From NCBI RefSeq assembly GCF_002939705.1, contig NZ_MDCB01000013.1, forward strand, positions 1 through 64,000: a stretch of 64,000 bases of DNA, read 5' to 3'. Below are positions 1 through 50,641 of the stretch, one piece after another. The position numbers and the translations under genes are program-made. Origin of the DNA: Xanthomonas albilineans (GTDB lineage Bacteria; Pseudomonadota; Gammaproteobacteria; Xanthomonadales; Xanthomonadaceae). Position 1 is the stretch's first letter. Every line of letters begins with the position of its first letter. The notes under the pieces are model-generated. The model was not told the origin of the DNA. It made no database searches and was given only the letters and a program-made list of their open reading frames with translations.

Positions 1-3000
1 CCATCAGGTGCCGGTAACGCCTTACGATCCAGCTTGCCATTCGGGGTCAGTGGCAGGCGATCCAACCGCACATAAGCGGCTGGGACCATGTAATCCGGCA
101 ACACATCCGTTAGCCAGCTGCGTAAAGTTTCTGCGCCCAGATGCTCGGAGGTCACGCCCTCGACACCGACCCAATACGCGACCAGCCGCTTGTCGGCTAC
201 TACCGCATCATCGAGCGCCACCACCACGCACTCGCGCACATCCGCATGCGCGCTCAGCCGTGCCTCGATCTCGCCCAATTCGATGCGGAATCCACTGATC
301 TTGACCTGGTGATCGTTGCGTCCGACAAACTCGATCGTGCCGTCGGCACGCCAGCACCCCAGATCGCCAGTGCGGTACATCCGTGCCGTCGGATCGTCGC
401 TGAACGGATCGGTGAGGAAGCGCTCGGCGGTCAAGTCATCGCGATTGAGATACCCACGCCCCACGCCATCGCCACCGATATACAGCTCGCCCACCACCCC
501 GATCGGAACCGGCGCACTGTTTATATCCAGGATATAAATACGCGTATTGGCGAGAGGCTGTCCGATAGTGACAGCCGAATCGCATTCGGCATCTTGCGTC
601 AGATGTTCTGCAGTACAAGAAACCGTGGTCTCTGTCGGTCCATAGGTATTAACAACTTCTATGTTGTGAGGCCTTAATGCATGCCATTCCCTTAGCTTCT
701 GCGGAGATATGGCATCTCCAGTGACATTCAGAAGTCGCACGCCTTGCAGTTGTACACGTGCCAGTTCCGGCGATTGCTTCCATGTGCCGACAAGGCTATG
801 CCAATGCGCCATCGTCAAATGCACCACCGTCACCCGTGGGGACGAAGATATCTCTCCGCATCCATGATCCACAGCGCCGAATATCGTTGGTGCAAGAACA
901 AGTGCAGCCCCGCCAAGCAAGGCAGGGAAGATTTCTTCCACCGAAAGATCGAAGCTGATCGAATTTTGTTGCAAGACGAGATCGGATTGCGTCACCCCGA
1001 ACAACGTCACCGCATCCAACGCGTAGTTGCACAGATTCCTGTGCTCGATCATGACACCCTTCGGCGCGCCGGTCGATCCGGATGTATAGATCACATACGC
1101 CAAATGGCGTGCGGTCAGGCCATTGGCATGACGGTCGGGATTACTGTCAGGCAGATGCTCCCAGCGCGTGCCGTCTACTTGCAGATCGACGATCACAGTA
1201 GAATTACCACTGCCCTCGACAAGGTGCCGGCTGGCGGTATCCGTCAGCACCGTCAACGCGCCGCAATCGGCACGCATGTAGGCCAGCCGCTCCGGCGGAT
1301 AAGCAGGATCCAGCGGCACATACGCACCACCGGCTTTCAGCACGGCAAGTAACGCCACCACCATCTCCACGCTGCGCTGCACGCAGATCGCCACCCGCTC
1401 GTCCGGGCGCACACCCAACTCGCGCAGGTAATGCGCCAGGCGATTGGCACGTGCGTTCAACTCGCCATACGTCAGCGACGCCTCGCCCTGCACCACCGCG
1501 ATCGCCGTGGGATCGCGCGCCACCTGCGCCTCGAACAACTCGTGCACACACGCATCGCGCGGATAATCCGCCGCTGTCGCATTCCATTGAATCAATACCT
1601 GATGGCGCTCGGCCTCACCCAGGATTGGTAGACGGTCCACCGCCCGATCGTCAGCGTCTTCGGCCACCATCGCCGCCAACAAATGCTGCCAATGACCTAT
1701 CCATCGCTCCAGCGTCGCATGCTCGAACAACGCGGTGGCATAGGTCAGACTGCCGACGATCCCATCCTTGCTTTCTTCCAAGGACAGCGATAGATCGAAC
1801 TGCACGCTCGTCTGCGCCGCACCCAGACCACTGGCATCGAGTTCGCCAAGATTCAACACACCCTGCGGTGTGTTCTGCCAGGCGAACATCACCTGGAACA
1901 ACGGTGCATGCGCCAGGCTGCGCGGCGGCTGCACTAATTCCACCACCTGCTCGAACGGGATGTCCTGATGCGTCTGTGCTTGCAGCGCACGCTCCTTCAC
2001 CGACGCCAGTAACTGCGCCAACGTCGGCGAGCCGGACAACTCCACCCGCAACGCCAGTGTATTGACAAAGAAGCCGATCAGCCCCTCGGTCTCCGAGCGA
2101 CCACGATTGGCCACCGGACTGCCGATCACCACATCGTCCTGTCCAGACAAGCGCGATAGCAGCATCGCGCAACTGGCGAGTAAGGTCATATACATCGTCA
2201 GCCCGTGCCGCTGGCTGAGTTCCTTCAGCGCCTGCGCCTGCTGCGGACCGACGACCACTTCCAGCGCTGCGCCGGCATGGTCTTGCCGGGCAGGTCGCGG
2301 ACGATCCGTTGGCAACTCCAGCAACACCGGCGCACCGGACAGCGTTTCGCGCCAGTAAGTCGCCTGTTGCTGCAATACTTCGCCCACCAACCATTGCCGC
2401 TGCCAACTCGCATAATCGGCATATTGGATCGGCAACGGCGGTAAAGGATCGGCTTCACCACGTGCAAACGCTCGATACAGCGCGCTCAACTCGTTGGTCA
2501 AAATCCCCATCGACCACCCGTCCGAGACGATGTGGTGCATGGTCACGAAGAGGACGTGTTCGTCGTGGGCGAGCTGTACCAACACGCCACGGATCAGCGG
2601 GCCGCGATCCAGCGCGAAGGGTGTCTGCGCTTCCTCGGCCAACAGCCGCTCCAGCACCGCCTCATGCTCGGGCACCTCCCGCAGATCGTGAGCGATCAAA
2701 TGGAAGCCACTATCCTCAGCAGCGACCTGCTGCAATGCTTGCCCATCGATCAAGGCGAAGGTCGTACGCAGCGATGCATGCCGCGCCACGATGCGATCCA
2801 GCGCACGTTGCAGCGCATGCCTCTCCAGTGGCCCGCGCAAACGCAGGCCACCGCTGATGTGATATGCCTGACTGACACCCTCGAACTGCGACAGGAACCA
2901 GAGCCGTTGCTGTGCAAACGACAGCACGCGCGGTGCATCTGGTGCCAGCGGCATGATCGGCGACAAGATCGCGCCGGAGGAAGACGCCACACAAGCGGCA

Positions 3001-6000
3001 AGCTGCTGGAGCGTGGCATGGGCGAACAACTCGGCCACGCCGATCTCGGCACCCAAGTCCTGACGCAAGCGCGACGCGACCCGCACCACCAGCAACGAAT
3101 GCCCGCCGAGAGCGAAGAAGTTGTCGTGCCGCCCGATCGTCTCCAGACCCAACAGGTCGCGCCAGATCACCGCAATGGCTTGTTCGATTTCACCCTGCGG
3201 TGCTTCATACGCATGCGCCGCATAAGCCACACCATCCGGTGCCGGCAATGCCTTGCGATCCAGCTTGCCGTTGGCGGTCAACGGCAGCTTGTCCAGTTGC
3301 ACATAGGCCGCCGGCACCATGTAGTCCGGTAGCACATCCGATAGCCAACTGCGCAATCTCTGTGCATCTACATCCTCGGCACCAACCCAGTACGCTACCA
3401 ACCGCTTGTCGCTGCCTGCCGCCGCATCCAGCGGCACCACCACGCACTCGCGCACATCTGCATGCGCACTCAGACGCGCTTCGATCTCGCCTAACTCGAT
3501 GCGGAAACCGCGGATCTTGACCTGGTGATCGTTGCGGCCCACAAACTCGATCGTGCCATCGGCACGCCAGCGACCCAGATCGCCACTACGGTACATCCGC
3601 GCCGTCGGATCGGTACTGAATGGATCGATGAGGAAGCGTTCTGTGGTCAAGTCGTCGCGATTGAGATACCCACGCCCCACGCCATCACCGCCGATATACA
3701 ACTCGCCCACCACTCCAATCGAAACTGGTGCACCGTGTGCATCGAGGATATAGATGCGCACATTAGCAATCGGACGACCGATCGGTGGTGCTCCCGTCGC
3801 ATTCGCATCACATTCATGCACACTGACACAGACCGTCGTCTCCGTGGGCCCATATGCATTGATCAAACGTCTTCCTTCACCCCAACGTTTCACCATCGCA
3901 GCAGGCAGTGCCTCACCTGCAACGACAACCGTTTGCAAAGAGACCAGCTCTTCAACATTTGACACCGTAGGCAACACTATTGGTGGCAACGTCGCGTTGG
4001 TGATTTCCTTCTTCTTGATTATTTCAAAAAAATCATCTCCCGCCAGAATTTCATTATTGAATGGGATAAATAATGCCCCCCCCCAGCAGATCGCCATCAT
4101 AATTTCGAACGTACAGGCATCGAAACTGAAAGAGGCAAACTGCAAGATACGGCTATTGGAATTTAAGAATAATATTTTCTTCTGAGCGCAAGCCATGTTG
4201 ACCAAGCCGCGATGCTCGTTCATAGCACCCTTGGGCGCACCGGTCGATCCGGACGTGTAGATCACATACGCCAAATGGCGTGCGGTCAGGCCATTGGCAT
4301 GACGGTCGGGATTGCTGTCCGGTAGGTGCTCCCAGGGCTCGCCGTCGGCTTGCAGGTCCACGATCACTGCCGTAGCGGCACTGTCCTCGACTAGGTGGCG
4401 GCTGGCGGCATCCGTCAGCACCGCCACCGCGCCGCAATCGGATTGCATATAGGCCAGCCGCTCCCGCGGATAGGCCGGGTCCAGCGGAACATAAGCACCA
4501 CCGGCCTTGAGCACCGCCAGCACCGCCACCACCATCTCCACACTACGCTGCACGCAGATCGCCACGCGATCGTCCGGGCACACGCCCAATTCGCGCAGGT
4601 AATGCGCCAGACGGTTGGCCCTCGCATTCAACTCGCCGTATGTCAGCGACACCTCGCCCTGCACCACCGCGATGGCCGATGGATCACGCGCCACCTGCCT
4701 CTCGAACAACTCATGTATACACGCATCGCGCGGGTAATCCTCTGCGGTTGCATTCCACTGCGTCAGCACCTGATAGCGCTCGACCTCGTCCAGCAATGGC
4801 AAACGATCCACCGCCTGATCTTCGGCGCCCTCGGCCAACATCGCCGCCAACAGATGGCGCCAATGTCCCATCCACCGCTCTAGAGTCGAATGCTCGAATA
4901 GCGCTGTGGCATAGGTCAGACTGCCGACAATCCCCTCTTCGCTCTCCGCCAAAGACAACGACAAGTCGAACTGCGCGCTCGTCTGTGCGACGCCAACTTC
5001 ACTGGTCTCTATCTCGCCAAGATCCAACTCACCATGTGGTGTGTTTTGCCACGCCAACATCACTTGGAACAACGGTGCATGCGCCAGGCTGCGCGGCGGT
5101 TGTAATAGCTCCACCACCTGCTCGAACGGGATGTCCTGATGCGCCTGCGCCTGCAGCGCACGCGCCTTCACCGATGCCAGCAGTTGCGCCAGCGTCGGCG
5201 AGCCAGACAACTCCACGCGCAATGCCAGCGTGTTGACGAAGAAGCCGATCAGCCCTTCGGTCTCGGAGCGACCACGATTGGCCACTGGACTGCCGATGAC
5301 CACATCCTCCTGCCCGGAAAGCCGCGATAGCAGCAACGCCCAACTCGCGATTAACGTCATGTACAACGTCAGCCCATGCCGCTGGCTCAGCGCCTTTAGC
5401 GCCTGTGCCTGCTGCGGACCGACGACCACCTCCAGCGTCGCGCCGGCATGGTCCTGACGGGCTGGACGCGGACGATCCGTCGGCAGTTCCAGCAGCACCG
5501 GCGCACCGGACAGCGTCTCGCGCCAGTAACTGGCCTGCTGATCCAACACCTCGCCCGCCAGCCATTGCCGCTGCCAGCTCGCATAATCGGCATATTGGAT
5601 CGGCAATGGCGTTAGCGGATCGGCCTCGCCACGTGCAAATGCCCGATACAGCACGCTCAGTTCGTCGATCAAAATCCCCAAGGACCACCCGTCCGAGACG
5701 ATGTGGTGCATTGTCACGAACAGCACGGACTCGTCATCGGCAAGCTGCACCAGCCGGCCACGGATCAGCGGGCCGCGCTCCAGAGCAAATGGTGCTTTCG
5801 CCTCATCGGCCAATAAACGCTCCAGCGCGTCCTCGCGCTCAACCAACTCGCCTAGATCGTGAACGATCAACTGGAAGCCGCTGTCCTCGGCGGCGATTTG
5901 CTGCAGCGCCTGCCCATCGACCAGCCCAAAGGTCGTGCGCAGCGATGCGTGCCGCGCCACGATGCGATCCAGTGCACGTTGCAACGCCTGGGTGTCCAGC

Positions 6001-9000
6001 GCCCCACGCAAACGCAGGCCGCCGCTGATGTGATACGCCTGGCTGACGCCTTCGAATTGCGACAGAAACCAGAGCCGCTGCTGCGCAAACGACAGCACGC
6101 GCGACGCATCCTGCTCCAGTGGTACGATCGGTGGCAAGACCGCGCTAGAGGAAGACGCCACACGCGCGGCAAGCTGCTGGAGCGTCGCATGCGCAAATAG
6201 GTCGGCCACGCCGATCTCGATATCCAACTGCTGACGCAAGCGCGAAGCGACCCGTACCGTCAGCAACGAGTGACCGCCGAGAGCGAAGAAATTATCGTGC
6301 CGCCCGATGTTCTCTAGACCAAGCAGATCGCTCCAAATCGTGGCAATCGTTTGTTCGATGTTGCCCTGCGGCGCTTCATACGCATGCGCTGCATAAGCCG
6401 ACCCATCCGGTGCTGGCAATGCCTTGCGATCCAGCTTACCGTTCGGGGTCAGTGGCAGGCGATCCAACCGCACATAGGCGGCTGGGACCATGTAATCCGG
6501 TAGCACATCCGATAGCCAGCTGCGCAAAGTTTCTGCGCCCAGATGTTCGGACGTCACCTCCTCGGCACCGACCCAGTACGCCACCAGCCGTTTGCCCGTG
6601 CCTGTCGCATCCTCCAGCGCCACCACCACACACTCGCGCACATCCGCATGCGCGCTCAGCCGTGCCTCGATCTCGCCCAACTCGATGCGGAATCCACGGA
6701 TCTTGACCTGGTGATCGTTGCGTCCGACAAACTCGATCGTACCGTCGGCACGCCAGCGCCCCAGATCACCAGTGCGGTACATCCGCGCAGCCGGATCGGC
6801 ACTGAATGGATCGGTGAGGAAGCGCTCGGCGGTCAAGTCGTCACGATTGAGATACCCACGCCCCACTCCATCGCCGCCGATATACAACTCGCCCACTACC
6901 CCGACCGGAACTGGCGCATCGTGTGCATCCAGGATGTAGATGCGCGTATTGGCGATAGGACGACCGATTGGCATCGTCTCCGATGCAAAGAGATCTTTGA
7001 TAACACCATCGACAGCAACGTCCGTGATTTCAGCGGGCCCATAACTATTTACAAATACATACTTTTCATTACCTGAAATCCATGCCGAAAGGCGATCTCC
7101 TTTTATCGACTCTCCACCAAGTACAATATAGCGCAACTGATCAAGCAGAATTTCCTTATTTCCAGACCCGCATTCATCAAAAACTCCATACAACTGACTT
7201 GGCGCACAATTGATCAACGCGGCGCCACTCGACTCAAGAAGACTCAAAATACTTGACCCCACCATTACAACTGCCGGCGCCAATACGACAGTAGAACCAA
7301 CAAATAATGGAGAAAAAATATTCTTAAGCGTCAGGTCAAAAGAAAAAGAAGAAACAACCAATACCTTCTCGCCCTGCCTTAAATAGCCAAGAGCGTAGTG
7401 ATGGTATAAATTGACACAACCCCGGTGCTCGATCATCACGCCTTTGGGCGCACCGGTCGATCCGGACGTATAGATCACATACGCCAGATGGCGCGTAGCC
7501 AAACCAATGGCATTGCGATCCGGATTGCTGTCCGGCAGTTGTGCCCAGCGCTCGGCGTCGACGTGCAGATCGACGATCACGGCCGAAGCAGCACTCTCCT
7601 CGATCAGGCTGCGGCTGGCGGTCTGCGTCAGCACCGCCACCGCACCACAATCGGCGAGCATGTAGGCCAGTCGCTCCGGCGGATAGGCCGGATCCAGCGG
7701 CACATACGCGCCACCGGCCTTCAACACCGCCAGCAACGCCACCACCATCTCCACACTACGCTGCACGCAGATCGCCACGCGATCGTCCGGGCACACGCCC
7801 AATTCGCGCAGGTAATGCGCCAGACGGTTGGCCCTCGCATTCAACTCGCCGTATGTCAGCGACACCTCGCCCTGCACCACCGCGATGGCCGATGGATCAC
7901 GCGCCACCTGCCTCTCGAACAACTCATGTACACACGCATCGCGCGGATAATCTTCCGCAGTTGCATTCCACTGCGTCAACACTTGATGGAGCTCGGCCTC
8001 AGACAGTAATGGCAGACGATCCACCACCTGATCTTCAGCGCCCTCGGCCACCATGGCTTCCAACAGATGACGCCAATGTCCCATCCACTGCTCCAGCGTC
8101 GAACGCTCGAAAAGCAATGGATCAAAATCCAGAATGAAACCTATCTTTCCTCCCCATTTGACCGCCTCTAATACAAGGTCAAGTGCTGCAGCACCAGCAA
8201 TCGGAGGATGGCAGAAGTGAACGAGATGCAAACCACCCCAATGCACAGGCGCAATTTCATCATCGCCGACCAAAATATTCAACGCATCGCCAAAGCCACG
8301 CGGATTCTGAAATACGAACATGGTCTGAAAAAATGGCGAACGACTTTCCTCTCGATGAGGATTAAGTCGTTCGACCAACTCGAAAAATGGAAAATCCTGA
8401 TTTTCCATCGCACGCCTAACGCGACTACGCACTCTGCGCAGCAACTCCCCGACGGTAAGATCAGGATCGAAATTAGCTTGCAAGACGACCTGATTAAAGA
8501 ATGCCCCGGTGACATCGGACCACTTCTTCCCTCTCCGAGCCGGCATCGGCGATCCGACATTGAAATCATCCTGACCCGTAATCCGACGCAACAAAATGAA
8601 ATAAGCCGCCAGCAAGACCACGTAGATCGAGGAATTACAGCGATCTGAAAAATTATTCAACTTCATGGACAACTCCATGTCCAAACCAAAGTAGATGGCA
8701 TCTCGGTGCTTCGCTGGAAACGCCGCCCGTGGCGTGCGTACCGGCAAATTCAAGGATGGAACCTCATCAGCAAGCAATTCCTTCCAATAAGAAAATTGCT
8801 TACTTCCGCCATCACCGTTAATCCAATCACGTTGCCAGCACACATAATCGAAGTAGCTCGGCTTCGATTCACTGCCACAGGAGACCACCGGGCGTAATGG
8901 CGCAGCGCCACCAATTCCCTCCAGAATAACGCCCAATTCTTCGATCAAACGCCAAAGCGACCAACCATCCACCACAAGATGATTGAATGTCAAAACAATA

Positions 9001-9446
9001 ACGCTTTCTTGCGCATTGACCCGATAAATCCCGACTCTAAATAACGGAGCAACTGTGAGATCGAAAGGCCGAACGCTATCTTCCTTGACCATACTATCAA
9101 GATCCGCGGATTTTACCCCATATACATCAACCACTTGAAGTTGCAACCGCGCAAAACGCTCGCTTCTTTGTTCCGGCTCTTTGCCCACATCACGAAAGCG
9201 AGTGCGCAACATCGCATGACGCTTCATTAGCTCTGCAATCGCCTTATCCAATAAGTCAAGATCAACTGCACCAAGAAGACGTGCGAAAAAGCTAATGTTG
9301 TAATTCCCCTGCAACTCCGGCTGCAATTTGTACAAAAACCATAAATTGCGCTGATTTGCGGACAATGGGAACCAGGCATCATCATTCACACTAGCGAAAG
9401 CGTTTTGACCATCAACTTTCGGAACCATTACTTCAAAATTTTCCAC
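1..9446 (-). CDS. Non-ribosomal peptide synthetase, first three modules (C-A-PCP-C-A-PCP-C-A...), 3' end outside window
   Basis: One minus-strand frame stays in register from 9446 to the left edge (at least 3,148 residues). Domains in order: C1 (about residues 10-440), A1 (460-1000), PCP1 with LGGHSLL (carrier Ser near 1060), C2 (1110-1540), A2 (1560-2060), PCP2 (Ser near 2117), C3 (2165-2590), A3 (2610-end; NGKLDRKA sits at the window edge, so PCP3 lies outside). A3-core motifs read YTSGSTGAPKG. By the GrsA alignment I read specificity codes as D-L-K-N-I-L-S-D-V for A1 (not recognised), D-A-F-T-V-A-A-V-C for A2 (aromatic, Phe/Tyr/Trp-like) and D-L-E-H-N-T-T-V-S for A3 (recalled as the 2,4-diaminobutyrate code of Pseudomonas lipopeptides). 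No epimerase or thioesterase is visible. C1 has NHLVVDG instead of HHxxxDG; the catalytic second His is kept. The GTG at 9446 follows GAGGG; an in-frame ATG at 9428 is the alternative. The product is unknown. Confidence 0.93.
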   Translation of the reverse strand, partial: MENFEVMVPKVDGQNAFASVNDDAWFPLSANQRNLWFLYKLQPELQGNYNISFFARLLGAVDLDLLDKAIAELMKRHAMLRTRFRDVGKEPEQRSERFARLQLQVVDVYGVKSADLDSMVKEDSVRPFDLTVAPLFRVGIYRVNAQESVIVLTFNHLVVDGWSLWRLIEELGVILEGIGGAAPLRPVVSCGSESKPSYFDYVCWQRDWINGDGGSKQFSYWKELLADEVPSLNLPVRTPRAAFPAKHRDAIYFGLDMELSMKLNNFSDRCNSSIYVVLLAAYFILLRRITGQDDFNVGSPMPARRGKKWSDVTGAFFNQVVLQANFDPDLTVGELLRRVRSRVRRAMENQDFPFFELVERLNPHREESRSPFFQTMFVFQNPRGFGDALNILVGDDEIAPVHWGGLHLVHFCHPPIAGAAALDLVLEAVKWGGKIGFILDFDPLLFERSTLEQWMGHWRHLLEAMVAEGAEDQVVDRLPLLSEAELHQVLTQWNATAEDYPRDACVHELFERQVARDPSAIAVVQGEVSLTYGELNARANRLAHYLRELGVCPDDRVAICVQRSVEMVVALLAVLKAGGAYVPLDPAYPPERLAYMLADCGAVAVLTQTASRSLIEESAASAVIVDLHVDAERWAQLPDSNPDRNAIGLATRHLAYVIYTSGSTGAPKGVMIEHRGCVNLYHHYALGYLRQGEKVLVVSSFSFDLTLKNIFSPLFVGSTVVLAPAVVMVGSSILSLLESSGAALINCAPSQLYGVFDECGSGNKEILLDQLRYIVLGGESIKGDRLSAWISGNEKYVFVNSYGPAEITDVAVDGVIKDLFASETMPIGRPIANTRIYILDAHDAPVPVGVVGELYIGGDGVGRGYLNRDDLTAERFLTDPFSADPAARMYRTGDLGRWRADGTIEFVGRNDHQVKIRGFRIELGEIEARLSAHADVRECVVVALEDATGTGKRLVAYWVGAEEVTSEHLGAETLRSWLSDVLPDYMVPAAYVRLDRLPLTPNGKLDRKALPAPDGSAYAAHAYEAPQGNIEQTIATIWSDLLGLENIGRHDNFFALGGHSLLTVRVASRLRQQLDIEIGVADLFAHATLQQLAARVASSSSAVLPPIVPLEQDASRVLSFAQQRLWFLSQFEGVSQAYHISGGLRLRGALDTQALQRALDRIVARHASLRTTFGLVDGQALQQIAAEDSGFQLIVHDLGELVEREDALERLLADEAKAPFALERGPLIRGRLVQLADDESVLFVTMHHIVSDGWSLGILIDELSVLYRAFARGEADPLTPLPIQYADYASWQRQWLAGEVLDQQASYWRETLSGAPVLLELPTDRPRPARQDHAGATLEVVVGPQQAQALKALSQRHGLTLYMTLIASWALLLSRLSGQEDVVIGSPVANRGRSETEGLIGFFVNTLALRVELSGSPTLAQLLASVKARALQAQAHQDIPFEQVVELLQPPRSLAHAPLFQVMLAWQNTPHGELDLGEIETSEVGVAQTSAQFDLSLSLAESEEGIVGSLTYATALFEHSTLERWMGHWRHLLAAMLAEGAEDQAVDRLPLLDEVERYQVLTQWNATAEDYPRDACIHELFERQVARDPSAIAVVQGEVSLTYGELNARANRLAHYLRELGVCPDDRVAICVQRSVEMVVAVLAVLKAGGAYVPLDPAYPRERLAYMQSDCGAVAVLTDAASRHLVEDSAATAVIVDLQADGEPWEHLPDSNPDRHANGLTARHLAYVIYTSGSTGAPKGAMNEHRGLVNMACAQKKILFLNSNSRILQFASFSFDACTFEIMMAICWGGALFIPFNNEILAGDDFFEIIKKKEITNATLPPIVLPTVSNVEELVSLQTVVVAGEALPAAMVKRWGEGRRLINAYGPTETTVCVSVHECDANATGAPPIGRPIANVRIYILDAHGAPVSIGVVGELYIGGDGVGRGYLNRDDLTTERFLIDPFSTDPTARMYRSGDLGRWRADGTIEFVGRNDHQVKIRGFRIELGEIEARLSAHADVRECVVVPLDAAAGSDKRLVAYWVGAEDVDAQRLRSWLSDVLPDYMVPAAYVQLDKLPLTANGKLDRKALPAPDGVAYAAHAYEAPQGEIEQAIAVIWRDLLGLETIGRHDNFFALGGHSLLVVRVASRLRQDLGAEIGVAELFAHATLQQLAACVASSSGAILSPIMPLAPDAPRVLSFAQQRLWFLSQFEGVSQAYHISGGLRLRGPLERHALQRALDRIVARHASLRTTFALIDGQALQQVAAEDSGFHLIAHDLREVPEHEAVLERLLAEEAQTPFALDRGPLIRGVLVQLAHDEHVLFVTMHHIVSDGWSMGILTNELSALYRAFARGEADPLPPLPIQYADYASWQRQWLVGEVLQQQATYWRETLSGAPVLLELPTDRPRPARQDHAGAALEVVVGPQQAQALKELSQRHGLTMYMTLLASCAMLLSRLSGQDDVVIGSPVANRGRSETEGLIGFFVNTLALRVELSGSPTLAQLLASVKERALQAQTHQDIPFEQVVELVQPPRSLAHAPLFQVMFAWQNTPQGVLNLGELDASGLGAAQTSVQFDLSLSLEESKDGIVGSLTYATALFEHATLERWIGHWQHLLAAMVAEDADDRAVDRLPILGEAERHQVLIQWNATAADYPRDACVHELFEAQVARDPTAIAVVQGEASLTYGELNARANRLAHYLRELGVRPDERVAICVQRSVEMVVALLAVLKAGGAYVPLDPAYPPERLAYMRADCGALTVLTDTASRHLVEGSGNSTVIVDLQVDGTRWEHLPDSNPDRHANGLTARHLAYVIYTSGSTGAPKGVMIEHRNLCNYALDAVTLFGVTQSDLVLQQNSISFDLSVEEIFPALLGGAALVLAPTIFGAVDHGCGEISSSPRVTVVHLTMAHWHSLVGTWKQSPELARVQLQGVRLLNVTGDAISPQKLREWHALRPHNIEVVNTYGPTETTVSCTAEHLTQDAECDSAVTIGQPLANTRIYILDINSAPVPIGVVGELYIGGDGVGRGYLNRDDLTAERFLTDPFSDDPTARMYRTGDLGCWRADGTIEFVGRNDHQVKISGFRIELGEIEARLSAHADVRECVVVALDDAVVADKRLVAYWVGVEGVTSEHLGAETLRSWLTDVLPDYMVPAAYVRLDRLPLTPNGKLDRKALPAPD
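4524..4717. repeat. Perfect 194-bp direct repeat, copy in NRPS module 2
   Basis: This segment, near the start of the A2 domain, is base-for-base identical to 7737-7930 in module 1. The match ends with a single mismatch at 4718. Surrounding DNA of the two modules is similar but not identical, so the block looks like a recent duplication or gene conversion between modules. Confidence 0.93.
7737..7930. repeat. Perfect 194-bp direct repeat, copy in NRPS module 1
   Basis: This is the partner of 4524-4717 and lies at the equivalent place in the A1 domain, just upstream of the specificity core. Identity with no mismatch over 194 bp is far above the divergence seen elsewhere between these modules. 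Confidence 0.93.
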
Positions 9447-10433
9447 GCCACCCTCACAAAGTTTAATTCCTTAGAGAACGTGAACCACTATCGATGAGCT
9501 GAACTATTTTTTAATATTTTTTTCATAATTGATTCTTATGTACGAAAAAAATACGGAATCGCAACAGCGCCCGTAGACGCCAGAACCATGGCACGGATAC
9601 AGGTAAATAAAGCAAATATCAGCAAATATTGTGGCCGGCGGTCGCGCCGATGGCGTTCAACACATCAGCTTGAGTGCCATTGAACCAGCAGCGGCCGAAT
9701 CGATGCTACCCGCCACAGATTCTCGATCTTCAGCTCCACCACTTGTCGGAGCGTACTCCAGTTACATTGCCACCTGGAAAGCAAGCTGGTCAACTTCAAA
9801 CCACCGTCACCACCGCTAACAGGGATGGCAGCCTCAACATGGCGGCGGCACGACTGGTCGCAACGACCATCGCGATGCAACGCATTCGACGCCGACCAAC
9901 GCTGGTCACTGAACTTACAGGTGGCCGGAGCGCTAACGTCTTTGCAACGCCAACTCGTTGCCATGGGCTAACGGTTACACCACAGCACGACGACACAGCG
10001 CATACCCACACAGGTGCCGGTGTTGCCAGCAAGGTTGGATACACCCGGATGGAATCGCTGCTGATGCTTTGCCCGGCAAGCGCGCAGACGAACTCCACCT
10101 TCAGCCGGGCGACGTACCGCTATGGATCGGCAGCGCACAAAGCCTGCGCTACTAACACCATTTCAATTTGATCCGGATGTAGCGACCGCTGTCTCTGGCG
10201 GCACCGAACGCGCTGACCGAAGCACTGCACGCCCTGCCCACACGTAACAAGTCCAAGGTCGGTACTGCTGTTGCACAGCGACGGCGAAATACAGGCACCG
10301 CTGGACTGAACCTCGGCTCCCACCGCCGCACCGATCGAGCCCGCGGCGCAGTAAAGCGGCGCAGTAAATAAGACTGCGATCACACACCAAGCACGGCGAC
10401 CGCGGCGACGACCCTGACCTGCGTGGAACCCGA
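9447..10433. other. Gap without a supportable gene, possibly decayed DNA
   Basis: About 990 bases lie between the NRPS start and the next gene. The first 150 bases are AT-rich and probably hold the NRPS promoter. The rest is GC-rich with only short ORFs on both strands, none with a recognisable domain or consistent codon usage. A few plus-strand phrases, for example LHLQPGDVPLWIG near 10100 and LLLHSDGEIQAPL near 10260, look like pieces of proteins in different frames, which would fit an old pseudogene, but I cannot name a family. Confidence 0.4.
9537..9564 (-). promoter_or_regulatory. Candidate promoter of the NRPS gene
   Basis: On the minus strand TTGCGA (9564-9559) and TACATA (9542-9537) are separated by 16 bases in a strikingly AT-rich stretch about 90 bases upstream of the NRPS start. 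Placement and spacing suit a sigma-70 promoter. This is pattern matching only. Confidence 0.35.
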
Positions 10434-10895
10434 CTACTTCACCTCAAGCCTGACAGATCGCGAATCCGAAGCCTGCTCTTCCCTGGGCCGCGCGTAGATC
10501 AGGTCGACGACACCATTGCCACGATTCATCGCCTTGAAGGTGAAGATGACACTCCCACCGCACCCCACTTCTCCCTTGCCACAGGAGCTACTCGGGCGGC
10601 GAGAGACATCGAGCAGCGACAGCGACCGCGGCAGAGTGCGCAACGCCCATGACATGCCGGTCGAATTATTTTCGGGAAGCTCGATCGCGACCAACTGACC
10701 ACGCTTCAGCGGAAACCCCTTTATGGCATCGGCCAGACAGGTCTTGGCTACCGGCTGGTCGGCGTTGCCGGTCACCTGGACGATGGAGCCGTCCGAACAC
10801 ACGCCAGCGCCAGGGGCGACAGCGCCTGCGGCCATAGCCGGAAGACTCAGGCAACCGCTGGCAGAGAGCAGTAAAAGCAGGAAAGAACGCGTCAT
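10434..10895 (-). CDS. Secreted chagasin-like (I42 family) protease-inhibitor protein
   Basis: The 153-residue product starts with a hydrophobic signal peptide (about residues 1-22, with a possible weak lipobox ASGC). The mature part carries the three loop signatures of chagasin-type cysteine peptidase inhibitors in the right order: ENNSTGMSW (NPTTGY-like loop), GEVGCGGS (G-rich loop) and YARPRE (RPW-like loop), within about 110 residues of predicted beta-rich sequence. The known family role is blocking papain-like proteases in the periplasm or outside the cell. It is transcribed in the same direction as the genes behind it but is separated from the LON-domain gene by about 280 bases, so it is probably its own unit. 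Assignment rests on loop motifs. Confidence 0.7.
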   Translation of the reverse strand: MTRSFLLLLLSASGCLSLPAMAAGAVAPGAGVCSDGSIVQVTGNADQPVAKTCLADAIKGFPLKRGQLVAIELPENNSTGMSWALRTLPRSLSLLDVSRRPSSSCGKGEVGCGGSVIFTFKAMNRGNGVVDLIYARPREEQASDSRSVRLEVK

Positions 10896-11178
10896 CTGAA
10901 GTTTCCTCGATCATGGGTGGAAACGATGTACGGGTATCCGCCCGCCCGGTGCGCTGGGCCATTGCCGGTGGCAGCTGCGATGCGGGAGGATCGCGACCAA
11001 TCATCATCCACACAGATCAGCCCGAGGCTGAACGCAGGAGCGCGGCGCTGTCGAGGATACCGTCGCCCGCCGATCTTCGCGCTCATGGGACGCAGCGCGT
11101 GGCTGGCTTATGTGCCACGCCAAGCAACGCCGGCACCGAATCGGGCGCGAAAATCGGCACGACGTCATGAATCGCCGC

Positions 11179-11760
11179 TCACGGAATCCAGGCCAGCAAT
11201 TGCTCCAGCCGCACGTGCGGATCGTCTTGCTGCAACAGTGACAGGCGTTGCCGTTCGTCAAGCGGCAGCAGTTCGGCCAGACGCCAGCCGACCCAGGCGG
11301 CCTGATCCAGCAGGCGTGGCCCGACCACCGGATACACCGCAGCCGCCTGGTCCAACAGGCTCTCCAGCAGCGTCGCCAGCAGCGCATGCTGCGGACGCAG
11401 TTCGTCGTCGTGATCCGGTTCGCACCACGCCACATCGCCAACCACCAGGCCATTGTCGCGAGTCCAGTGACGCGCCACATGAAAGCGCCGCGCGCCGCGC
11501 AGACTCAACAGCAGCACGCCATCGGTGCCGACATCGAAATCGACGATGCGCGCCTCGATGCCGAACTCCGCCGGTAACGCTGCGGCACCGGCCTCACTGC
11601 CATGCAGGATCAAGCAAACACCGAAACCGCTGTCGTGACGGCCGCACTCGCGAACCATATCCAGATAACGCGGCTCAAACACGCGCAGCTTCATCGATGC
11701 GCCTGGCAGCAGCACTTTATGCAGCATGAATAGCGGCAGCGTCGTTCGCTCCACGCTCAC
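11179..11760 (-). CDS. LON substrate-binding domain protein
   Basis: The 193-residue protein matches the N-terminal domain of Lon protease as a stand-alone unit: it begins LPLFMLHKVLLPGASMKLRV, followed by FEPRYLDMV and a G-F-G-V-C-L core, with no ATPase or protease part. Its biochemical role in bacteria is not established. The GTG at 11760 follows GGAG at good spacing and lies 28 bases after the mpl stop, so it is likely co-transcribed with mpl. A GTG at 11754 would also work. Longer in-frame versions would overlap mpl and lack family support. Confidence 0.82.
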   Translation of the reverse strand: MSVERTTLPLFMLHKVLLPGASMKLRVFEPRYLDMVRECGRHDSGFGVCLILHGSEAGAAALPAEFGIEARIVDFDVGTDGVLLLSLRGARRFHVARHWTRDNGLVVGDVAWCEPDHDDELRPQHALLATLLESLLDQAAAVYPVVGPRLLDQAAWVGWRLAELLPLDERQRLSLLQQDDPHVRLEQLLAWIP

Positions 11761-11788
11761 TCGCACACTCCGCTGCGTCCGATCAGAA

Positions 11789-13165
11789 TCATTGAAGCGC
11801 CGCCAGGAAACGCCGCGGCGCGCCGTCGAAACCGCCGTTGGACATGAACACCACATGGTCGCCCGCGCGTGCCTGCGTCTGCAACGCCGCCAGTAGCGCG
11901 TCCACGTCGGTGGCGGCGTAAGCCTGGCCGCGCACTGCGGCGATCACTTTGCCGGCGTCCCATGCGAGTTCCGGACGCTGCAGGAACACCACCGCATCGG
12001 CCACCTCAAGCGACGGCGCCAGCGCATCGGCATGCGCGCCTAAGCGCATCGAATTGCTGCGCGGCTCCATCGCCACCACGATGCGCGCCGTACCGACCTT
12101 GGCACGCAACCCTTCCAGGGTGGTGCGGATCGCGGTGGGATGATGGGCGAAATCGTCGTACACGGTGATGCCCTGCGCCTGACCAAGCACTTCCAGCCGC
12201 CGCTTGACGCTGCGAAAACGCGCCAGCGCCGGGATCACCTGCGCAGGCGCCACGCCAACCGCATGCGCCGCCGCCAAAGCCGCCAGCGCGTTCATCACGT
12301 TGTGGCGACCGAGCAACGACCATTCGACCACACCCAATTGCTGGCCTGCATGCAGCACCGCAAAACGGCTGCCATCGGCGGCAAGCAGACGCGCGCTCCA
12401 ATCGAACCCCGGATCGAAGCCGAAGCGCTCCACCGGCGTCCAGCAGCCCATCGCCAGCACCTCGCGCAGATGCGCGTCCTCGCCATTGACGATCAGGCGG
12501 CCCCGGTGCGGCACCGTGCGCACCAGGTGGTGGAACTGACGTTGGATCGCGGCGACATCGGGAAAAATATCGGCGTGATCGTATTCGAGGTTGTTGAGGA
12601 CCGCCACCAGCGGCCGGTAGTGCACGAACTTGCTGCGCTTGTCGAAGAACGCGGTGTCGTATTCGTCGGCCTCGACCACGAACAACGGCCGCTGCGGGGT
12701 CGCGACCGGACCGCCCAGGCGCGCCGACACGCCGAAATCCTCGGCTACTCCGCCGATCAGGAACCCCGGCTCGCGACCCGCCGATTGCAACAGCCAGGTC
12801 AGGATGCTGGTGGTGGTGGTTTTGCCATGGGTGCCCGCCACTGCCAGCGTCTCGCGCCCGGGCAACACCTGCTCGCTGAGCCACTGCGCCCCGGAAATGT
12901 AGGCGCGTCCGGCATCGAGCACCGCCTCCACGGCGAGGTTGCCGCGCGAGAGCGCATTGCCGACGATCACCTGCGCGCAGTCGGCCTCGATGTGCTCCGG
13001 CAGGTACCCCTGCTTCAACGCGATGCCCAATTGCTCCAACTGCGTGGACATCGGCGGATAGATCGCATGGTCGCTACCCTCGACCACATAGCCGAGTTCA
13101 CGCGCCAACGCGGCGACACCCCCCATGAACGTACCGGCGATGCCGAGAATATGGATTTTGCTCAT
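11789..13165 (-). CDS. mpl: UDP-N-acetylmuramate:L-Ala-gamma-D-Glu-meso-DAP ligase (murein tripeptide recycling)
   Basis: The 458-residue protein has the Mur-ligase order: an N-terminal Rossmann-like region starting MSKIHILGIAGTFMGG, the ATP-binding loop AGTHGKTTTT near residue 110, the central FVVEADEYDTAFFDKRSKF segment typical of Mpl, and the C-terminal YDDFAHHPTAI and MEPRSNSMRLG motifs. It attaches recycled tripeptide to UDP-MurNAc in the cytoplasm, sparing de novo synthesis of peptidoglycan precursor. The ATG at 13165 is chosen because family homology begins there; an upstream extension of 70 residues is Arg/Cys-rich and looks non-coding. The LON-domain gene follows closely. Confidence 0.95.
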   Translation of the reverse strand: MSKIHILGIAGTFMGGVAALARELGYVVEGSDHAIYPPMSTQLEQLGIALKQGYLPEHIEADCAQVIVGNALSRGNLAVEAVLDAGRAYISGAQWLSEQVLPGRETLAVAGTHGKTTTTSILTWLLQSAGREPGFLIGGVAEDFGVSARLGGPVATPQRPLFVVEADEYDTAFFDKRSKFVHYRPLVAVLNNLEYDHADIFPDVAAIQRQFHHLVRTVPHRGRLIVNGEDAHLREVLAMGCWTPVERFGFDPGFDWSARLLAADGSRFAVLHAGQQLGVVEWSLLGRHNVMNALAALAAAHAVGVAPAQVIPALARFRSVKRRLEVLGQAQGITVYDDFAHHPTAIRTTLEGLRAKVGTARIVVAMEPRSNSMRLGAHADALAPSLEVADAVVFLQRPELAWDAGKVIAAVRGQAYAATDVDALLAALQTQARAGDHVVFMSNGGFDGAPRRFLAALQ

Positions 13166-21373: not shown

Positions 21374-23463
<2,090 letters not shown>

Positions 23464-23632
23464 GGCGCTATTAGACCCGTTTCCGGCGCGAGCGCCAACC
23501 GGTCTCATGTCCAGAGCCTGCACACAGGCCGTACTTTGTGTCAGCACTGCCACACGCGGCGGCAGCGGCGACAAACTCCAACCATGTGGCCGACCTAGCC
23601 TAGACATACGAGTGCAAGAAGTCTCTCTCATT

Positions 23633-50500: not shown

Positions 50501-50641
50501 GAGTGGCTAACAAAACGTCGCGAGTCGCTGTCGGGTGGGCGCGTACAGCGCGCAGGAACCGCAGTGTACAGGTGGTACATCAGGATTCCGAGCACTGCCC
50601 GCGCCCTTCCGGCGGCGACGCAGTCGTCTTGTTAGCTACTC
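50501..50641. mobile_element. Complete 141-bp MITE with TTA target-site duplication at the dctA stop codon
   Basis: The element has terminal inverted repeats GAGTGGCTAACAA (50501-50513) and TTGTTAGCTACTC (50629-50641), matching in 12 of 13 positions, with similarity continuing a few bases further. It contains no ORF of note. It is flanked on both sides by TTA (50498-50500 and 50642-50644), which fits a 3-base TNA duplication as made by some IS5-family transposases. The right TTA is exactly the reverse complement of the dctA stop codon TAA. A truncated relative lies at 21217-21317. Confidence 0.82.

What the first reader, a model, noticed from the sequence alone, without database searches (positions are those of the whole stretch)
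540..7430. Adenylation domains of the NRPS look like mosaics with swapped specificity cores
In all three modules the flanks of the A domains are very similar between modules, but the stretch between motifs A3 and A5 changes abruptly: about 540-1060 in A3, 3760-4195 in A2 and 6990-7425 in A1. In A1 and A2 this core is also visibly richer in A and T than its surroundings. These blocks contain the specificity residues, so natural subdomain exchange is the simplest explanation. The first C domain (about 8110-9446) is likewise AT-richer than C2 and C3.
Basis: partly seen in the sequence, partly recalled or inferred. Interest (0 to 1): 0.72.

Follow-up and report, generated by a model that had tools for sequence, protein, structure and literature searches.

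The report
Swapped specificity cores in peptide synthetase
A large peptide-building enzyme of a Xanthomonas bacterium is a mosaic in which the stretch that chooses each amino acid has been exchanged while the surrounding parts stayed nearly the same; this is a clear new example of a known way in which such enzymes change.

Summary
Confirmed. The partial NRPS gene (3-9446, minus strand, cut by the contig end) has three A domains. Between modules their flanks are 82-89% identical in DNA, their cores only 40-42%; fourfold sites show the same contrast. All three cores are AT-rich, A1 and A2 most. Each core has a close relative (70-88% amino-acid identity) in another NRPS gene of this genome or of Xanthomonas sp. 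GPE 39, while the flanks follow different trees; AU tests reject each for the other. Cores are not simply fast-evolving: at positional orthologues in other Xanthomonas they are about as conserved as the flanks. Best reading: natural A-core exchange by homologous recombination between modules, with gene conversion keeping flanks alike (a 194-bp exact repeat joins modules 1 and 2). This process is known (Calcott 2020, Baunach 2021, Booth 2022). The AT-rich first C domain belongs to a starter-C family that is AT-rich in its relatives too, a separate matter. No outside donor was found in the samples searched.

The parts
3..9446 (-). Partial NRPS gene, GTG start (frame open to 9470), C-A-T-C-A-T-C-A, running off the contig end
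8112..9446 (-). C1, starter-type condensation domain, GC 0.48; relatives in own contig C15 and GPE 39 are AT-rich too (0.456, 0.467)
7440..7930 (-). A1 N flank (A1-A3 motifs), common chassis
6969..7439 (-). A1 specificity core, GC 0.44, GC3 0.41; core type shared with GPE 39 (74% aa); code read by eye DLKNVGSDVK (homoserine type)
6405..6968 (-). A1 C flank (A6-A10 motifs), common chassis
4776..6098 (-). C2 condensation domain, 85% aa identical to C3
4227..4717 (-). A2 N flank
3783..4226 (-). A2 specificity core, GC 0.47; core type shared with own contig C39 (86% aa) and two GPE 39 modules (70-73% aa); code read by eye DAFTVAAVCK (aromatic type, recalled)
3234..3782 (-). A2 C flank
1605..2927 (-). 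C3 condensation domain (approximate limits, set by analogy with C2)
1056..1540 (-). A3 N flank
567..1055 (-). A3 specificity core, GC 0.52; core type shared with module 1 of own contig C15 (88% aa); code read by eye DLEHNTTVSK (2,4-diaminobutyrate type, recalled)
3..566 (-). A3 C flank, reaching the contig end
7737..7930 (-). 194-bp exact repeat, copy 1 (N flank of A1), read as a recent gene conversion tract
4524..4717 (-). 194-bp exact repeat, copy 2 (N flank of A2)

Best explanation
The three A domains are natural recombinants. A conserved module chassis (C2/C3, linkers, N-terminal part of A up to motif A3, and A from motif A6 onwards) carries interchangeable cores of about 440-490 bp that hold the amino-acid pocket. 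Cores have been exchanged between modules and genes by homologous recombination whose crossovers lie in or near the conserved motifs at A3 (just after PKG, near EHRG) and A5-A6 (PIGRP). Gene conversion between modules also keeps flanks alike, which in turn keeps cores exchangeable. The consequence is a change of the amino acid at one position of the peptide without disturbing the C-A and A-T contacts. Shown: the mosaic, its borders, the discordant trees, the core relatives elsewhere, the exact flank repeat. Inferred: homologous recombination as the mechanism, the direction of single events, and the effect on the product.
For: Sharp borders. Core and flank trees reject each other: core data on the N, C or joint flank tree p-AU 2.6e-18, 9.8e-36 and 4.0e-7; N and C data on the core tree 2.1e-8 and 3.2e-56; 24 of 28 domains used. 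Core relatives lie in other genes or species: A1 core 74% aa in GPE 39, the next listed hits 29-34%; A2 core 86% in own contig C39 and 70-73% in GPE 39; A3 core 88% in own contig C15. Three-sequence tests on nine hand-picked triplets (six with a window module as child): eight reached by 0 of 2000 permutations, one by 17 of 2000. In 31 domains of 12 core types, 0.95 of the GC3 variance of cores lies between types (permutation p 0.0002), not significant for flanks (p 0.50 and 0.14). One GPE 39 core sits in two chassis families: core DNA 86-88% alike, N flanks 56-58%, C flanks 70%. Syntenic first module of own contig C15 and GPE 39: same starter C (78% DNA), flanks 82-83%, core 43%. Fit to chassis consensus: start just after A3 in 18 of 25 domains, end at A6 in 18 of 25, both in 15 of 25.
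Against: The N and C flanks also disagree with each other (N data on the C tree p-AU 2.0e-7, C data on the N tree 9.3e-69), so the chassis is itself recombined and single events cannot be ordered. In the three-sequence tests the recovered tract was often wider than the core, reaching up to A2 or down to A7-A10 in several triplets, and one triplet was weak (17 of 2000). No donor outside Xanthomonas was found in the samples searched. In the trio G002/G009/G017 the exchanged position 10 has flanks also closest to the presumed donor module, so a longer tract probably moved there. PMC7486941 reports that partial A-domain substitutions of this kind in PvdD gave no visible product (passage), so function of such mosaics cannot be assumed. 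The genome is a 148-contig draft broken at NRPS repeats and no reads were seen; GPE 39, whose fetched NRPS loci lie on one 3.5-Mb contig (with some masked runs), shows the same pattern.
Confidence: 0.9

Rival explanations
1. Cores never moved: modules arose by duplication and diverged, and only the flanks were later made alike by gene conversion (concerted evolution), leaving old, divergent cores in place.
For: In this genome both flanks have a median identity of 83% between modules, against 72% (N) and 79% (C) between the two genomes; exact repeats join this gene's modules (194 bp) and join it to contigs C39 (161 bp) and C15 (88 bp); the three window modules form one group on the joint flank tree (support values not read). 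Concerted evolution of NRPS and PKS domains is described in PMC4256081 (passages).
Against: Within GPE 39 flanks are no more alike (median 73% and 77%, foreign-chassis domains included) than between genomes, and the window modules do not all group on the separate N and C trees. Cores of one type lie in different genes and in a different order in the two species; one core type sits in two chassis families; first modules at a syntenic locus carry unrelated cores. Flank conversion contributes but does not explain all.
Confidence: 0.2
2. No recombination: the specificity core simply evolves faster, by diversifying or relaxed selection, between strongly conserved flanks.
For: The core holds the pocket residues, and protein conservation of the flanks is high.
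Against: Fourfold sites show the same step (few core sites); GC3 steps too; borders are sharp; core and flank trees conflict. At positional orthologues with the same core, core DNA is at least as conserved as the N flank at 12 of 13 positions (G002-G009) and 10 of 11 (G002-G017), and as the C flank at 5 of 13 and 6 of 11, mostly within a few points (ties counted).
Confidence: 0.02
3. Assembly chimeras: collapsed repeats in a draft genome joined the wrong cores to the flanks.
For: 148 contigs, and several contigs including this one end inside NRPS repeats.
Against: The same mosaics with the same core types occur in GPE 39, whose fetched NRPS loci lie on a single 3.5-Mb contig, and core changes at one position occur in the trio G002/G009/G017, each held as one contig.
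Confidence: 0.03

Closest known systems
Natural A-core subdomain exchange in bacterial NRPSs (Baunach 2021, PMC8097286, passages read; Calcott 2020, PMC7486941, passages read)
   Same: Recombination aimed at the A core with the C-A and A-T contacts kept; hotspots between A2 and A4 and from close to A5.
   Different: [quoted passage not shown] here 15 of 25 fits lie between the end of A3 and A6. Another clade; a GC step marks the cores.
Wollamide/desotamide A-domain recombination (Booth 2022, PMC9205934, passages read)
   Same: Intragenomic exchange with a core relative elsewhere in the same genome, borders at A2 and A5-A6, discordant inner and outer trees.
   Different: There the specificities were tested in vitro; here nothing was tested.
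Concerted evolution of NRPS/PKS domains (Medema 2014, PMC4256081, passages read)
   Same: Homogenised repeated domains within a cluster by internal recombination.
   Different: Here it acts on flanks while cores keep distinct types shared with a related species.
META-A and META-C NRPS loci of X. albilineans (Royer 2013, PMC3849588, section 6 whole and other passages read)
   Same: NRPS-only genes with an unusual pair of starter C domains, said to be 81% similar; here C13 and C15 starter C are 67% identical in protein. Diaminobutyrate signatures are reported in both loci; the A3 core type here occurs in both genes.
   Different: A-core exchange is not discussed in what I read of it. The match to META-C (or META-A) is my inference; locus tags were not compared.

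Membership tests
Natural A-core subdomain exchange | Abrupt identity drop limited to the A core, with conserved flanks | tested here: met
   three pairs, gains 157-190 against shuffle maximum 14
Natural A-core subdomain exchange | Core and flanks have incompatible phylogenies | tested here: met
   AU tests on 24 of 28 domains
Natural A-core subdomain exchange | Borders in the conserved motifs around A2-A4 and A5-A6 | tested here: met
   (18 of 25 starts, 18 of 25 ends, both in 15 of 25); tracts were often wider
Natural A-core subdomain exchange | A putative core parent elsewhere in the same or a related genome | tested here: met
   A2 86% and A3 88% aa in own genome; A1 74% aa in GPE 39
Natural A-core subdomain exchange | Strain pairs with the same flanks and a different core at one position | tested here: inconclusive
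   a syntenic first module differs in core, but its flanks are no closer than the between-species level; no strain series was examined
Natural A-core subdomain exchange | Changed amino-acid specificity shown by experiment | not testable with these tools
   none
NRPS A domain (TIGR01733) | Score above the curated cut-off | tested here: met
   448-478 bits against 317, all three domains
META-C or META-A of X. albilineans | Same gene at the same chromosomal place | not tested
   no annotated X. albilineans record was searched; the link rests on the starter C pair and the paper's description

The most novel reading that the evidence does not exclude
The AT-rich cores, and separately the AT-rich starter C domain, came from a low-GC lineage outside Xanthomonas and now circulate in this clade as standard cassettes with nearly fixed borders (just after A3 to A6), while ongoing gene conversion keeps the chassis uniform so that any core can be dropped into any module.
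Probability: 0.25. Interest if true: 0.6.

Novelty: new member of a known kind. Interest (0 to 1): 0.35.

Why it matters
It gives a compact set of natural recombinant A domains whose borders are sharp enough to read, in a clade for which the paper searches made here listed no report of A-core exchange. The borders lie close to positions that earlier engineering work used, each in a different study (K205 upstream, I352 downstream in GrsA numbering, cited in PMC7486941; my placement of the motifs on GrsA is recalled). It also shows flank homogenisation and core exchange side by side, which helps explain how NRPS genes stay recombinable.

Tried and rejected
Donor search for the cores. Class sample of 274 genomes each, limit 1e-22: best outside hits 39% (core 1), 46% (core 2), 41% (core 3). 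Phylum sample of 378 genomes, limit 1e-25: core 1 only its own genome, core 2 at most 48%; core 3 was not searched there. Plasmid collection, best six rows seen of 37, 505 and 196 records: at most 39%, 50% and 40%, and no record reached 60%. One scan of named genomes with the core 1 alignment, which relied on two exact 8-residue patterns and so finds close relatives only, gave two loci, both GPE 39. Inside the genus, cores were compared only with the loci I had fetched. So no donor; the low-GC origin stays open.

In-situ exchange in the trio G002/G009/G017: positions 10 and 13 of 13 carry another core in G017. I do not count position 13, since module order downstream differs, and position 10 seems to have moved with longer flanks. 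I left one extra G017 module (core cluster 26) out of that positional table.

Dropped before counts: three GPE 39 domains with a different chassis and one GPE 39 domain with a masked run (only; its fit failed and it counts as a miss). My motif-based extraction missed domains: seven A3 motifs had no usable A7 (some came back by another motif), and a second core-1 relative in GPE 39 found is not in the sets.

The specificity codes were read by eye on the alignment with recalled GrsA spacing. The homoserine assignment of DLKNVGSDVK is from PMC12283262 (one passage); the other two assignments are recalled.

The window locus has no NRPS counterpart found in GPE 39: homology stops at window 9772 and tblastn of the NRPS against 19 kb there found none.

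Print search: the listings (20 of 36 papers shown; 15 of 3,393; 15 of 19; 15 of 37) showed no paper on A-core exchange in Xanthomonas NRPSs. The one mention of recombination in PMC3849588 concerns gene content of META-B.
Full report
What is there. The window starts at the end of a contig (G000:C13) of a Xanthomonas draft genome of 3.68 Mb in 148 contigs; the genus is supported by the Xanthomonas sRNA sX9. The closest NRPS relatives in the genus lie in G012, which is Xanthomonas sp. GPE 39, described as a species close to X. albilineans (PMC4584326, passages). One 8.4-kb syntenic stretch is 89% identical. X. albilineans is my inference for the window's own species. The gene at 3-9446 (minus) encodes at least 3148 residues with three C, three A and two T domains and runs off the contig.

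Check of the observation. The three A domains were codon-aligned with 25 others, 28 in all: 11 of this genome and 17 of GPE 39. Between the window modules the N flank is 84-89%, the core 40-42% and the C flank 82-89% identical in DNA. Fourfold sites, which do not depend on amino-acid choice, fall from 61-83% in flanks to 17-38% in cores, though few core sites qualify (16-18). A two-breakpoint model finds tracts at about 6968-7421, 3767-4211 and 551-1040; no shuffle (40 per pair) came near. Core GC is 0.44, 0.47 and 0.52 against 0.60-0.65 in the flanks.

What it is. Each core belongs to a type that recurs elsewhere. In 105 A domains extracted from fetched loci of eleven Xanthomonas genomes, 37 core clusters form at 65% identity. 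The A1 core is shared with GPE 39 (74% aa). The A2 core is shared with contig C39 of this genome (86%) and with two GPE 39 modules (70-73%). The A3 core is shared with the first module of contig C15 (88%), with more distant relatives in G002, G009 and G017 (56-57%). Trees of core and flanks on 24 of the 28 domains are mutually rejected by AU tests. In three-sequence tests on nine triplets that I chose, eight were reached by none of 2000 permutations and one by 17; the tracts found were often wider than the core. GC3 goes with the core type: in 31 domains of 12 types, 95% of its variance in cores lies between types (permutation p 0.0002), while flanks show no such effect (p 0.50 and 0.14). Members of a type share ancestry and four types have one member, so this says that composition travels with the core, not that domains are independent draws.

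Which part moved. Both did. The 194-bp exact repeat between A1 (7737-7930) and A2 (4524-4717), in flanks that are otherwise 84-89% identical, reads as a recent conversion tract; exact matches of 161 bp to contig C39 and 88 bp to contig C15 point the same way between genes. N and C flank trees also conflict with each other. Flanks are more alike within this genome (median 83%) than between genomes (72% N, 79% C), but not within GPE 39 (73% and 77%, foreign-chassis domains included). For moving cores: a core type of GPE 39 sits in two chassis families, with cores 86-88%, N flanks 56-58% and C flanks 70% identical; and at the syntenic locus of contig C15 and GPE 39 the first modules share the starter C (78%) and flanks (82-83%, the usual between-species level) but not the core (43%). 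In the trio G002, G009 and G017, 11 of 13 positions keep the same core cluster and two differ in G017; one of the two I regard as uncertain, and in the other the flanks seem to have moved too. Where the core type is unchanged, core DNA is at least as conserved as the N flank at 12 of 13 (G002-G009) and 10 of 11 positions (G002-G017), and as the C flank at 5 of 13 and 6 of 11, mostly within a few points. Cores are therefore about as conserved as flanks, which speaks against fast evolution of cores.

Borders. Against the chassis consensus of each genome, 18 of 25 domains leave the chassis just after A3 and 18 of 25 return at A6; 15 of 25 do both. One of the 25 fits failed and counts as a miss; three foreign-chassis domains were left out beforehand. 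The 15 stand for seven core types, since domains of one type share ancestry. Conserved motifs at both places blur the exact crossover.

C1. The first C domain is unlike C2 and C3 (32-34% aa). Its relatives that begin contig C15's NRPS and a GPE 39 gene are AT-rich as well (GC 0.456 and 0.467). Royer 2013 describes an unusual pair of starter C domains in META-A and META-C of X. albilineans, which this pair probably matches. Its composition is thus probably older than the present gene and separate from the core exchange.

Predicted products. By eye, with recalled GrsA spacing, the codes are DLKNVGSDVK (A1), DAFTVAAVCK (A2) and DLEHNTTVSK (A3). The first is listed for homoserine-activating domains (PMC12283262, one passage). 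The second resembles aromatic and the third diaminobutyrate codes; these two assignments are recalled. Royer 2013 reports diaminobutyrate signatures in META-A and META-C.

Origin of the cores. No close relative outside Xanthomonas was found in samples of the class (274 genomes per core), the phylum (378 genomes, cores 1 and 2 only), the plasmid collection, or one scan of named genomes with core 1. Their low GC remains unexplained.

Known or new. Natural A-core exchange with such borders is established: hotspots between A2 and A4 and from close to A5 (PMC7486941), wide occurrence (PMC8097286), a worked case with biochemistry (PMC9205934), and concerted evolution of NRPS domains (PMC4256081). 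Against easy conclusions on function, PMC7486941 found no visible product from partial A-domain substitutions in PvdD. This is a clear further case in a clade for which the listings seen showed no earlier report.

Noticed in passing
window 23367-23467 (-): TPP riboswitch above the gathering score.
   Followed up: no
window 50505-50580 (-): Xanthomonas sRNA sX9.
   Followed up: no
window 10434-10895 (-): Chagasin-family peptidase inhibitor I42 near the NRPS gene.
   Followed up: no
window 9772: Homology to GPE 39 (80% over 9772-12060) stops here; no NRPS in the 19 kb searched at that locus.
   Followed up: partly
L018 3480-5012 (own contig C15, module 2): A GC-rich core (GC3 0.84) that runs from A3 to about A7; best relative in the set only 48% in DNA.
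   Followed up: partly
L046 (GPE 39, 1598500-1617500): The NRPS gene syntenic to that of contig C15 is split into several open frames in GPE 39.
   Followed up: no
G000 contigs C43 and C44: Two short contigs give almost the same match to the NRPS query (2-2791 and 4-2793), perhaps near-identical repeats; not compared directly.
   Followed up: no
L078 (G017, 2720358): An extra module with a core of its own (cluster 26) lies between two modules that are neighbours in G002 and G009.
   Followed up: no
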